Below, one piece after another: positions 27,678-30,196 of a stretch of 64,000 nucleotides of DNA. Origin of the DNA: an uncultured Amylibacter sp. Lineage in GTDB: Bacteria; Pseudomonadota; Alphaproteobacteria; Rhodobacterales; Rhodobacteraceae. Below the pieces are notes generated by a model, which did no database searches, was not told the origin of the DNA, and saw only the letters and a list, made by a program, of their open reading frames with translations. Each line of letters begins with the position of its first letter. Positions within the stretch are counted from its first letter, which is position 1. A program made the position numbers and the translations under genes. The DNA is taken from NCBI GenBank assembly GCA_947497475.1, contig CANMGS010000001.1, positions 1,323,747 through 1,387,746 of the forward strand, given 5' to 3'.

Positions 27678-27698
27678 GTAGGTTATTATAAAAATTTA

Positions 27699-27729
27699 AA
27701 AGCCCTCGACGTTTGTCGGGGGCTTTTTT
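27699..27729 (+). terminator. Rho-independent terminator after rplW
   Basis: Stem AAGCCCTCGAC / GTCGGGGGCTT (one mismatch/wobble) with a GTTT loop and a run of Ts. It ends the S10 block early. Confidence 0.92.
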
Positions 27730-27738
27730 GTTTGTGGC

Positions 27739-27758
27739 GATGTCCCAGTTGGGACATC
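27739..27758. repeat. 20-bp palindrome downstream of the rplW terminator
   Basis: GATGTCCCA-GT-TGGGACATC is a perfect 9-bp inverted repeat between the convergent rplW and YCII genes. No T-run on either side; role unclear. Confidence 0.5.
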
Positions 27759-27778
27759 GGTTTATCTGATTGATAATA

Positions 27779-28090
27779 TTACATTTCCATGATTTCGGCG
27801 ACTTCGACCGTACCGTTATTGTCATGTATAGGACAGGCTTGGGCGATTTTGCAGGCAGCGTCGATGTCTGCGGCCTGAACGATCGAAAACCCTGATGTGG
27901 GGTTTGATCCGCCGTTGTCTGCTATACCGCCTGTGGAGACGGTTTTTGACATACCGACAGGGGCGCCTGGGTTGATAAATGCACCTGGTTCTGCGTCCAT
28001 CCATGCCTGCCATTTCGCCATTACCGCCTGTGGGTCTTGTGGGGTCTCGGAGGCGGCGCCGCCGTGATATACGAATATAAATTGTGCCAT
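27779..28090 (-). CDS. YCII-related (DGPF domain) protein
   Basis: 103 residues from ATG 28090 with AAGGATG as ribosome site. Sequence features of the YCII/DGPF dimeric ferredoxin-like fold: FIFVYHGG at the start, a KWQAWMD helix, GGIADNGGSNPTSGFSIVQAADIDAACKIAQACP. Family members include small chlorohydrolase-like enzymes and uncharacterised proteins often near ECF sigma factors; the function here is unknown. It is transcribed against the ribosomal genes in the gap that splits the S10 operon. Confidence 0.8.
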   Translation of the reverse strand: MAQFIFVYHGGAASETPQDPQAVMAKWQAWMDAEPGAFINPGAPVGMSKTVSTGGIADNGGSNPTSGFSIVQAADIDAACKIAQACPIHDNNGTVEVAEIMEM

Positions 28091-28203
28091 TTTTAAACAT
28101 CCTTAAATGAGAGTGTGTTGTTTTTTGAGCCGTGGGTTTTGCACCACCTGCTCCCTATACAACGTGCCCCATGACAGAAGTTGTCAGGATGTGATCGGCG
28201 TGC

Positions 28204-28231
28204 ACCATGCGTGCACAGGGCGTATGACTTT
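28204..28231. repeat. Imperfect direct repeat, copy A
   Basis: The stretch around TGCGTGCACAGGGCGTATGAC recurs about 418 bp downstream at 28622-28650 as TGCGTGCACAGCCGTTATGAC with 1-nt gaps. The two copies bracket the small ORF and the 11-bp repeats. Could be attachment-like ends of a small element or shared regulatory sites. Confidence 0.45.
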
Positions 28232-28291
28232 TTTATGATTTTGGATATTTTTAGAAAAAAGAAATACGGGGCTATTTCCACAGATTTGGGT

Positions 28292-28335
28292 GTATGGAAA
28301 GCGTATGGCAGACGTATGGAAAGCGTATGGCACGC
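28292..28335. repeat. Four tandem 11-bp repeats starting GTATGG
   Basis: GTATGG occurs at 28292, 28303, 28314 and 28325, spaced exactly 11 bp. The units alternate (GTATGGAAAGC, GTATGGCAGAC, GTATGGAAAGC, GTATGGCACGC), so it is also a two-copy 22-bp repeat. Near-helical phasing suggests an array of binding sites for one regulator on the same DNA face. Confidence 0.7.
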
Positions 28336-28341
28336 ACCCCC

Positions 28342-28542
28342 TTATCGAAACAGCAGCCTTATGCGGTTTCGGATGCGGATTTCGTTGATGTTGGGTTGGC
28401 GGGCAAAGGCCGCGACGATGGGGATGATAGGATCATCGGCGTGCAGGAATTTTTCTTGGATCAGAAAGTTGATCACATTGGCTCTGGTTTTTTGAGTAAT
28501 ATAAACGGTCTCAATCTCACCGCTCTTTGGAAAAATCATCAT
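28342..28542 (-). CDS. Small hypothetical protein (65-66 residues)
   Basis: The ORF begins MMIFPKSGEIETVYITQKTR; either ATG (28542 or 28539) may start it, with AGG close upstream of the second. Codon use is GCC/ATC/CCC-rich with normal residue composition, unlike a random frame. No family recognised. It lies directly downstream, on the same strand, of the structured region 28585-28774, an arrangement seen for small genes governed by an upstream RNA in phage-like elements. Moderate doubt that it is translated. Confidence 0.4.
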   Translation of the reverse strand: MMIFPKSGEIETVYITQKTRANVINFLIQEKFLHADDPIIPIVAAFARQPNINEIRIRNRIRLLFR

Positions 28543-28584
28543 GGCCTAATCGCCGCTCCCTTAAATCAAATATACAAATGAAAA

Positions 28585-28774
28585 CGGCCGTCGGATGATC
28601 CGACAGCCGGGGAGTTCGTAGACCGTGCGTGCACAGCCGTTATGACCTTTGGGCCGAAGCCTTGGACATACGTCATAACCTCCCCGACCTATAAATCGAG
28701 GAGGTATCATTGTACGGCTGATACCAGCCGACACGCATGGGGCTACGACACCCCGAGATGAGCTGTGGCTCATC
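28585..28774 (-). ncRNA. Highly structured, probably non-coding RNA or leader
   Basis: Six consecutive inverted repeats in 190 bp: 28585-28609 (11-bp stem, one wobble, with four As on its left giving a U-run on the minus strand, hence terminator-like), 28639-28679 (GTTATGAC/GTCATAAC), 28678-28705 (ACCTCC-CGA/TCG-GGAGGT), 28715-28730 (CGGCTG-ATAC-CAGCCG), 28739-28754 (GGGG/CCCC), 28757-28774 (GATGAGC-TGTG-GCTCATC). Some arms compete (GGTATCA/TGATACC spans two). The minus-strand terminator then precedes the small ORF at 28542. No known RNA family confirmed. Confidence 0.45.
28622..28650. repeat. Imperfect direct repeat, copy B
   Basis: Partner of the 28204-28231 copy: CCGTGCGTGCACAGCCGTTATGAC. 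It overlaps the left arm of the 28639-28679 hairpin. Confidence 0.45.
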
Positions 28775-28918
28775 CTGTGGCTAGGATAGGGGATGTGTGT
28801 GGGCTAGGGAAGGGGGAAATAGTATACGTTTGTTCTTTGCTAGTTTAATAAATTTACGGTGTTCAATGAGCTGTTTTTGTGTATTTATGCATAAGCATAA
28901 CAAGGAAATAAACCTTCA

Positions 28919-29338
28919 ATGTGGCATAGCTTACCAATAGAGTTTAATGTTTTTGGTACGCCTGTAAGTTTACAAGCGAAAAACCCTAAGGCCAAAGAAG
29001 AGTGGCAAAACCTTATTGCCGATGCAGCTTCTAGCGAGATTGAGGGTAGTGGTTGGAATATCGACAGTCAGAGATTAGGGGTCACAATATTTTACTTTCC
29101 TGAAGTAGAGATGGATGGTGATATAGATAATATCGTCAAGTACATAATGGATGCACTGGTAGGTGTAGTATATGTTGATGATAATTTAATCGACCGTTTA
29201 GTGGTTCAGAGATTTAACCCTCAGCATGACGCAACTTTTAACGACCCAAGTGAGAAATTAACTAATGCCATGCATGAGGACGGCCCTGTAGTATATGTTA
29301 AGATTGAAGAAATTAAGGAAGAGGAGATCATAGAATGA
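28919..29338 (+). CDS. RusA-family Holliday junction resolvase-like endonuclease
   Basis: 139 residues. The RusA catalytic signature is intact: DGDIDNIVKYIMDAL followed by VYVDDNLI, giving Asp68, Asp70, Lys74 and Asp87, which line up with the essential Asp/Asp/Lys/Asp set of E. coli RusA. RusA enzymes are usually lambdoid prophage genes that cut four-way DNA junctions as dimers. The gene is AT-rich and its stop overlaps the next start as ATGA. There are no phage genes nearby, so with its REase-HEPN partner it looks like a conflict or defence cassette (inference). Confidence 0.75.
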   Translation: MWHSLPIEFNVFGTPVSLQAKNPKAKEEWQNLIADAASSEIEGSGWNIDSQRLGVTIFYFPEVEMDGDIDNIVKYIMDALVGVVYVDDNLIDRLVVQRFNPQHDATFNDPSEKLTNAMHEDGPVVYVKIEEIKEEEIIE

Positions 29339-29991
29339 ATGACTACGCATTAATCGAACGTGAGACCCTCGAGAAAATGAAAAGTAATTGGGAGAAACAG
29401 GGCTTTGAAGTTATCACAGAATATAACAAGCTAAAGCAATATAACTTTTTTACCAATAACTACATACCAGATGCAATTCTACTGAAGGAAAATGATAATG
29501 TGATCGTTGAGATCATACGAAAATTTTCACCATCGACTGACACTAAACTAGAAAAGATCAAAACATTTATTTCTGAAAAAGATGGCTGGCGCTTTCAAGT
29601 TGTCTATGCAGGGGTAGAGAGTACCATAATTAACAAAACTAGTTATATAAGTATTCTAAATACAATTGAAGAAGCAAAAATATTAGAGGAAACTAATGAG
29701 AGAGCATCTTTATTGTTATATTGGGCAATTTTTGAAGCAATAGCGCGGCACATTTTCCCTAAAAGGACAACAAAACCACAATCTCCAGCAAGAGTAATAG
29801 AATTACTTGCGAGTTCAGGAAATATAACACCATCTGAAGCGAAATTATTAAGAGAGCTAATTAAAGTGAGAAATCAACTCATTCATGGAGCTTTGGAAGA
29901 AGAAGTAGATGAATTAAAATTAACAAAAATGCATCATATATCTATCGATTTAACTAAGAGCTTGTCTCAAAGGGATCAATTTGAAAAATAA
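29335..29991 (+). CDS. Putative PD-(D/E)XK nuclease fused to a HEPN domain
   Basis: 218 residues, AT-rich. The N-terminal ~110 residues read like a restriction-endonuclease fold: GFEVITEYNKLKQYN, then IPDAILL and NVIVEIIRK, i.e. Asp46 and Glu59, with the catalytic lysine position shifted or degenerate (Arg62/Lys63). The C-terminal ~100 residues are helical with the HEPN RNase-type motif RNQLIH (Arg169-His174) after LLRELIKV. HEPN domains are typical of toxin and antiviral RNases. Translationally coupled to the RusA-like gene. Function unproven; a DNA/RNA-targeting defence module is the favoured reading. Confidence 0.6.
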   Translation: MNDYALIERETLEKMKSNWEKQGFEVITEYNKLKQYNFFTNNYIPDAILLKENDNVIVEIIRKFSPSTDTKLEKIKTFISEKDGWRFQVVYAGVESTIINKTSYISILNTIEEAKILEETNERASLLLYWAIFEAIARHIFPKRTTKPQSPARVIELLASSGNITPSEAKLLRELIKVRNQLIHGALEEEVDELKLTKMHHISIDLTKSLSQRDQFEK

Positions 29992-30196
29992 CATTTTGGC
30001 TTGGTAATAAATTACTTGCCTACTTGCCACATCCCCCCATCCCTGATACATCCGCCCAATCGATTGGCCTCGGATTCGTTCTGGGGCCTCTCATACTTTT
30101 TAAAGCCGAGTGTTTTGCACTCTGAATTGACGGAACTACGGGGCCGTATAACCACAGCGGTCTGCGGATCGCGCTAAAAACGGAAGACAGAAAGAA
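29992..30196 (+). promoter_or_regulatory. Region upstream of rplB
   Basis: This 205-bp gap must hold a promoter for rplB because the rplW terminator and the inserted cassette lie upstream. A TTGACG (30127-30132) and TATAAC (30147-30152) are visible but only 14 bp apart, so the assignment is weak. Confidence 0.35.

What the first reader, a model, noticed from the sequence alone, without database searches (positions are those of the whole stretch)
28919..29991. Two-gene cassette: RusA-like resolvase plus PD-(D/E)XK-HEPN protein
RusA-like protein keeps the full Asp/Asp/Lys/Asp catalytic set; its partner combines a restriction-fold domain with a HEPN RxxxxH motif. The genes overlap by 4 bp, are AT-rich, lack phage companions, and sit in a break of the ribosomal operon. 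A junction-cutting DNase with a DNA/RNA nuclease resembles a defence or toxin system that I do not recognise as described.
Basis: partly seen in the sequence, partly recalled or inferred. Interest (0 to 1): 0.78.

Follow-up and report, generated by a model that had tools for sequence, protein, structure and literature searches.

The report
RusA plus junction-reader RNase gene pair
Two small overlapping genes, one for a DNA-junction-cutting type of enzyme and one that joins a DNA-junction-resolvase-like domain to a probable RNA-cutting domain, recur together in scattered bacteria; the pair looks like an undescribed defence-type or toxin-type module, but nobody has tested what it does.

Summary
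Window 28919-29338 encodes a RusA-family nuclease and 29335-29991 an archaeal-Holliday-junction-resolvase-like (AHJR/Hjc) domain fused to a HepT-like HEPN domain (AlphaFold pLDDT 89.8; folds). They are an almost obligate pair. In 386 class genomes, the window's own included, this RusA subfamily occurs in 6, all 6 beside the HEPN gene, one pair decayed. An AHJR-seeded scan of 397 phylum genomes finds RusA upstream in 6 of 7 hits. The genes overlap by 4 or 1 bp in 24 of 27 rows, diverge in step (Mantel r 0.84) and are under purifying selection. No relative of the HEPN protein turned up in the phage or viral collections. The pair is AT-rich and sits at a genus-specific variable-cargo site between rplW and rplB.

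Corrections: the catalytic HEPN histidine is H184, not H174. The ExK lysine is missing here and present in 9 of 23, so the AHJR domain may read DNA rather than cut it. The defence-island link is weak.

Best reading: a mobile two-gene conflict module linking branched-DNA recognition to an RNase. No description of the pairing was seen in the paper searches; function is untested.

The parts
28919..29338 (+). gene 1: RusA-family endonuclease, 139 aa
   Evidence: PF05866 E 5e-10, PHROG 140 and 34; AlphaFold2 mean pLDDT 87.1; invariant D68/D70/N71/K74/D78 in 23 of 23
29120..29182 (+). RusA acidic/lysine cluster D68-x-D70-N71-x2-K74 ... D87-D88
   Evidence: aligned with the D-x-D-N-x2-K...D-D segment of RusA 1q8r, a weak match of E 0.17
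29335..29991 (+). gene 2: AHJR/Hjc-like domain fused to HepT-like HEPN domain, 218 aa
   Evidence: PF18743 E 3.9e-18 and PF01934 E 4.5e-5; AlphaFold2 pLDDT 89.8; Foldseek to HepT and to Hjc/Hje
29350..29655 (+). AHJR (archaeal Holliday-junction-resolvase-like) domain, residues 6-107; D46 and E59 kept, ExK lysine replaced by Ile61
   Evidence: profile match to PDB 2eo0, 4tkd, 1hh1; column counts
29644..29985 (+). HEPN helical domain, residues about 104-217
29869..29886 (+). HEPN motif R179-N180-x3-H184
   Evidence: R and H invariant in 24 of 24 rows
28819..30032 (+). segment that differs from relative G018 (another ORF there) while both flanks align; contains the pair, about 100 bp upstream and 41 bp downstream
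   Evidence: blastn of window against L066: flanks align to 28818 and from 30033; other ORF in G018
27698..27727 (+). terminator-like hairpin after rplW, upstream end of the variable rplW-rplB interval
   Evidence: pattern match only
28902..28906 (+). AAGGA, possible ribosome-binding site of gene 1
   Evidence: read from sequence; inference

Best explanation
A mobile two-gene conflict module (defence or plasmid/element-competition type). Shown: RusA and the AHJR-HEPN protein are encoded by overlapping genes, conserved as a pair, diverging in step and patchily distributed. RusA keeps its recalled catalytic set, HEPN keeps its R-x4-H motif, and the AHJR domain resembles archaeal Holliday junction resolvases with an incomplete catalytic site. 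Inferred: the AHJR domain reads branched DNA (junctions or replication/recombination intermediates, for example of an invading phage or plasmid) without needing to cut it. RusA binds or cuts the same structures as the DNA-facing enzyme, and junction binding or RusA's product releases the HEPN RNase, which cleaves cellular RNA (tRNA or mRNA) and stops growth.
For: Domain identities. Reciprocal pairing. RusA genes of nine other class genomes score 42 bits or less against 157-207 for the five intact cassette RusAs, and no HEPN-protein match lies on their loci. Purifying selection on both genes and Mantel r 0.84, n 16, p 1e-4. R179 and H184 in 24 of 24, RusA D68/D70/K74 in 23 of 23, ExK lysine in 9 of 23. 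Patchy: 5 intact pairs plus 1 decayed in 386 class genomes, own genome included; on plasmids and at least one chromosome. Variable-cargo site in this genus, with a small-gene pair in relatives whose second member has a sub-threshold ParE match. No HEPN-protein relative in phages or IMG/VR; no RusA match in phages.
Against: Weak link with defence genes: one of 19 neighbourhoods has a clear defence system among the matches seen. No activity, toxicity or phage data exist. HEPN domains can be catalytically idle or serve dimerisation. The role of RusA (trigger, co-effector or antidote) is not resolved by sequence. One member (G558, L035) lacks the RusA N-terminal part with the HEPN ORF open, so the pair need not always be complete. 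No phylogenetic test of horizontal transfer was run.
Confidence: 0.45

Rival explanations
1. Toxin-antitoxin pair: the HEPN protein is an RNase toxin and RusA, encoded first and overlapping it, is its antidote by direct binding or by acting on the toxin-bound nucleic acid. It would stabilise plasmids and islands.
For: Upstream position of RusA with 4- or 1-bp overlap in 24 of 27 rows, near-obligate pairing, occurrence on plasmids, a possible TA pair at the same site in relatives (ParE match below cut-off), HepT is a TA toxin (NCBIfam model name).
Against: RusA keeps an intact recalled catalytic set under strong selection, which a mere binding antidote would not need. In G558 the RusA 5' part is missing while the HEPN ORF and its R/H motif are intact, hard to square with an essential antidote unless that HEPN protein is harmless (its AHJR E59 is K).
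Confidence: 0.25
2. DNA recombination/repair accessory: two Holliday-junction-type proteins that process junctions, with HEPN only as a dimerisation or nucleic-acid-binding domain; selected for plasmid or chromosome maintenance rather than conflict.
For: Both DNA-facing domains belong to junction-resolvase families. DNA-repair genes lie within about 9 kb of the pair on two plasmids: ligD and exodeoxyribonuclease III in L006; ligD (next to the pair), ImuA, Y-family and error-prone polymerases in L007.
Against: Invariant HEPN R and H in 24 of 24 suggest an RNase; patchy distribution; neighbours differ between lineages, no third gene family in more than 4 of 25 loci.
Confidence: 0.2
3. Restriction-like DNase pair: RusA and the AHJR domain jointly degrade structured or modified foreign DNA, HEPN being secondary.
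For: RusA with its recalled catalytic set complete; 9 of 23 AHJR domains keep the ExK lysine.
Against: 14 of 23, including the window protein, lack that lysine (4 of these have Arg there); no partner gene other than the pair recurs widely.
Confidence: 0.1

Closest known systems
HEPN-M/DUF86 domains fused to an archaeal Holliday junction resolvase-like REase (Anantharaman et al. 2013, PMC3710099)
   Same: Same fusion as gene 2: the table of HEPN families says DUF86 HEPN is 'occasionally fused to MNT, a previously undetected archaeal Holliday junction resolvase-like REase' (passages seen).
   Different: The main text has no mention of RusA or 'crossover junction' (0 occurrences); its Additional file 1 could not be read, so a mention there is not excluded.
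HepT-MntA (type VII) toxin-antitoxin system
   Same: HEPN fold and R-x4-H motif; Foldseek to HepT structures 7bxo, 6m6w and 5yep at probability 1.00 for the best rows but E-values of 3e-3 to 1e-2.
   Different: No MNT gene in the pair, no Tyr two residues after the His (D 13, A 6, Q 2, G 1, V 1 of 23; the Tyr rule is recalled), NCBIfam HepT model 25.6 bits against cut-off 60.
RusA-family Holliday junction resolvases of phages and prophages (PF05866, PHROG 140/34)
   Same: Family match and D-x-D-N-x2-K...D-D motif.
   Different: Distinct subfamily: intact cassette members 157-207 bits, RusAs of nine other class genomes 42 bits or less; no phage companions at the window; no phage record hit by tblastn.
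Archaeal Hjc/Hje resolvases (2eo0, 4tkd, 1hh1, 1ob8)
   Same: AHJR domain matches by profile (E 8e-6 to 6e-4) and fold (probability 0.8-0.98, E 1e-2 to 7e-2).
   Different: ExK lysine kept in 9 of 23 only; fused to HEPN.

Membership tests
RusA family | match to PF05866 above gathering score | tested here: met
   40.5 bits against 22.8
RusA family | catalytic Asp/Asp/Lys/Asp set (identity of the residues recalled) | tested here: met
   D68, D70, K74 23 of 23; D88 22 of 23 with E in 1
RusA family | Holliday junction resolution in vitro | not testable with these tools
   needs purified protein
AHJR-like PD-(D/E)XK nucleases | profile and fold match | tested here: met
   PF18743 65.6 bits against 26.1; Hjc/Hje matches
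AHJR-like PD-(D/E)XK nucleases | complete D...ExK active site | tested here: not met
   window has D46, E59, Ile61; Lys in 9 of 23
HepT-type HEPN RNases | HEPN fold with R-x4-6-H | tested here: met
   PF01934 23.6 against 23.5 bits (marginal); fold; R/H 24 of 24
HepT-MntA type VII TA | adjacent MNT nucleotidyltransferase and target Tyr after the His | tested here: not met
   partner is RusA; no widely recurrent third gene; no Tyr in 23
HepT-MntA type VII TA | NCBIfam HepT_toxin equivalog score | tested here: not met
   25.6 against 60 bits
Known anti-phage systems in PADLOC-DB 2.0.0 | any model match at E <= 1 | tested here: not met
   0 families for both proteins
Defence-island gene | enrichment beside known defence genes | tested here: inconclusive
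   AbiE in 1 of 19 loci and a few single PADLOC matches in 110 ORFs (25 of 59 families shown); control 112 ORFs gave mad2/mad3/mad8 matches only
Phage or prophage gene pair | homologues in phage genomes | tested here: not met
   no match in 50,697 phage records for either protein; pattern-based IMG/VR scans gave no HEPN-protein relative and 4 short RusA-motif matches

The most novel reading that the evidence does not exclude
A previously undescribed immune module in which a catalytically impaired Holliday-junction-resolvase fold serves as a sensor of branched DNA and, together with an active RusA resolvase, switches on a HEPN RNase, so that invading DNA is detected by its recombination or replication structure rather than by sequence or modification.
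Probability: 0.25. Interest if true: 0.85.

Novelty: new variant of a known kind. Interest (0 to 1): 0.6.

Why it matters
HEPN RNases are effectors in many bacterial immune and toxin systems (recalled; see PMC3710099, passages), but what triggers them is often unknown. A compact two-gene unit that couples two junction-type DNA proteins to a HEPN RNase would make branched-DNA sensing directly testable with about 1.1 kb of DNA, and it gives a defined gene family to add to defence-system annotation, whatever its exact trigger.

Tried and rejected
Chance neighbours: rejected by reciprocal pairing in separate scans. Phage cargo: not supported. HepT-MntA: rejected on partner and Tyr. Conserved third gene: in 25 loci, apart from the pair, no gene family was found in more than 4 loci. 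Most shared neighbours are within Methylobacterium or within Rhizobium/Agrobacterium loci; the few families linking unrelated loci lie at scattered distances of 0.3 to 9 kb and were not examined further. RusA-HEPN single-chain fusion: none among the loci held. Defence-island enrichment: 110 neighbour ORFs against 112 control ORFs, followed on 30 of the 110 proteins. One search shows 25 of its 59 matched families, so some matches are unseen; two BrxHI matches were not located. Search of the 35 held genomes of G470's class gave G470 as the only full-length member; 8 others match in the HEPN part only. Tblastn of the divergent G470 protein against plasmids: no match. Fold search of the RusA model was not obtained; the VIA-align library was not available. 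Paper searches (listings seen): 20 of 49 listed; 7 of 8 listed; 20 of 459 listed; passages of PMC3710099 and PMC12737573 (the single 'RusA' hit in the latter is an author name). No listed title is about a RusA-HEPN pair; most papers of subscription journals are not held.

Full report
OBSERVATION. The two ORFs are present as stated, 28919-29338 (139 aa) and 29335-29991 (218 aa), overlapping by 4 bp. Protein 1 is RusA family (PF05866, 40.5 bits, cut-off 22.8; PHROG 140 E 7e-9). Protein 2 has an N-terminal AHJR-like domain (PF18743, residues 6-107, 65.6 bits, cut-off 26.1) and a C-terminal HepT-like HEPN match just over its cut-off (PF01934, 23.6 against 23.5). A profile of relatives matches archaeal Hjc in the PDB (2eo0, 4tkd, 1hh1, E 8e-6 to 4e-4) with its N-terminal part and HepT (5yep, 6m6w, E about 5e-3) with its C-terminal part. 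AlphaFold2 gives mean pLDDT 89.8 (pTM 0.64) for protein 2 and 87.1 (pTM 0.85) for protein 1. Foldseek of the protein 2 model ranks HepT/HEPN structures (probability up to 1.00) and Hjc/Hje structures (0.80-0.98) high, but no E-value is below 1e-3 (best 2.1e-3) and other, unrelated-looking or PD-(D/E)XK-type nuclease entries also appear among the 50 rows shown.

THE PAIR IS REAL. Tblastn of each protein against 72,556 plasmids hits the same six records. The 18 loci first collected, L001-L018, which include the window itself and near-duplicates, all carry both genes adjacent (18 of 18); L002 and L013 appear to be the same contig (same length and matches). Among 386 class genomes, the window's own included, the HEPN-protein profile matches 7 (one, G139, only by a weak HEPN-part hit) and the RusA profile matches 6 at E <= 1e-10; those 6 are all among the 7 and adjacent. 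If placed independently this has probability about 1.6e-12 (it ignores relatedness). A scan of 397 phylum genomes seeded only by PF18743 found 7 genomes, of which 6 have a RusA just upstream. The exception, G760, is below the family cut-off; all 5 over the cut-off have RusA, one of them (G558) with the 5' part missing. Of 29 rows, two (L025, L038) lack the pair; in the other 27 the overlap is 4 bp in 14, 1 bp in 10 and absent in 3 (small gaps in G687 and G470, and the decayed G210) (start codons were chosen by my script). With a deeper RusA profile the five intact cassette RusAs in the class score 157-207 bits, while RusAs in nine other genomes score 42 bits or less; no HEPN-protein match lies on these nine loci, two of which are short. 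In 25 loci no third gene family was found in more than 4.

SELECTION. Ten close pairs, drawn from four clusters and so not independent, give dN/dS of 0-0.14 for RusA and 0.09-0.28 for protein 2 (its HEPN half up to 0.34). RusA and protein 2 distances correlate (Mantel r 0.84, n 16 of 23 after dropping 7 near-duplicates, p 1e-4), which shared inheritance alone could give. RusA D68, D70, N71, K74 and D78 are invariant in 23 of 23. HEPN R179 and H184 are invariant in 24 of 24. In the AHJR domain D46 is invariant and E59 is E in 22 and D in 1 of 23, but the ExK lysine position is K in 9, V in 7, R in 4 and I, L, A in one each. So the nuclease site of that domain is incomplete in 14 of 23 members, including this one (Ile). 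Left out of those 23 rows: L011 and L013 (near-duplicates), L024 (decayed) and L035 (RusA part missing; its protein 2 is in the 24 rows). That these columns are catalytic in RusA, Hjc and HEPN is family knowledge (recalled) supported by the alignments; the RusA alignment to 1q8r is itself weak (E 0.17).

MOBILITY. GC is 39% and 33% for the two genes against 46% for the window. None of the 60 relatives searched, 32 of them of the same genus, carries a close copy; the only hit, G047, is from another family of the class (34% identity). The rplW-rplB interval is 117 to 3026 bp in 13 of 15 same-genus genomes fetched (in the other two rplW was not found within the stretch), and 3 to 32 bp in 11 genomes of other families. 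In G018, whose rplB protein is 100% identical, the flanks align to window 28818 and from 30033, but the segment between them holds a different 254-aa ORF. Other cargo in relatives includes a small-gene pair with a sub-threshold ParE match, YaeQ and a nucleotidyltransferase, a Usp protein, CobW and a DMP19-like protein (9 cargo ORFs scanned). A decayed copy of both genes exists in G210, and in G558 the RusA 5' part is missing with the HEPN ORF open. The patchy distribution fits horizontal transfer, but no tree test was run.

CONTEXT ELSEWHERE. The pair lies on Rhizobium, Agrobacterium (a Ti plasmid), Azospirillum and Methylobacterium plasmid records and on a Pararhizobium chromosome record. In 19 dereplicated neighbourhoods (up to three ORFs on each side, 110 ORFs) PADLOC matches at E <= 1e-10 include AbiEi and AbiEii (AbiEii is annotated beside the pair in L006), a dCTPase (L017), a UvrD-like helicase (L016), two BrxHI matches and borderline restriction-type matches (L006, L007); 25 of 59 families are shown. 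The control of 112 ORFs gave only mad2/mad3/mad8 matches. I judge this suggestive but weak; many of the Pfam families shown for the neighbours are metabolic or transport (25 of 142 shown). Neither protein matches phage records, and pattern-based IMG/VR scans gave no HEPN-protein relative and four short RusA-motif matches.

INTERPRETATION. Two junction-type DNA proteins and one RNase-type domain in a two-gene unit, patchily distributed and kept under selection, fit a conflict module. My preferred mechanism is branched-DNA recognition by the AHJR domain and RusA, with the HEPN RNase as effector; every functional step is inferred. The toxin-antitoxin reading with RusA as antidote is the main rival.

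KNOWN AND NEW. The AHJR-HEPN fusion itself was listed in 2013 (PMC3710099, passages). No description of a RusA partnership was seen in the searches named in Tried and rejected. PADLOC-DB 2.0.0 has no matching model. I therefore rate it a new variant of a known kind (HEPN-based two-gene modules).

Noticed in passing
window 27678-30196 and L066-L080: The rplW-rplB junction is a variable-cargo site in this genus (117 bp to 3 kb in 13 relatives, with different ORFs in several of them), which is unusual inside a ribosomal protein operon.
   Followed up: partly
L067 4262-4920; the same two ORFs are visible in L069: A pair of small genes, the second with a ParE match below cut-off (17.2 against 23 bits) and the first with no Pfam match, sits at the same rplW-rplB site in two sister species.
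   Followed up: partly
L066 4106-4870: G018 carries an uncharacterised 254-aa ORF with apparent transmembrane stretches where the window has the RusA-HEPN pair; only a sub-threshold Pfam match.
   Followed up: no
L024 and L035: G210 holds a decayed copy of both genes; G558 has an open HEPN gene with the RusA 5' part missing and K in place of E59 of the AHJR domain.
   Followed up: partly
window 27779-28090, minus strand: A YCII-domain gene (28.0 bits, cut-off 24) lies in the same rplW-rplB interval, opposite in direction to the ribosomal genes.
   Followed up: no
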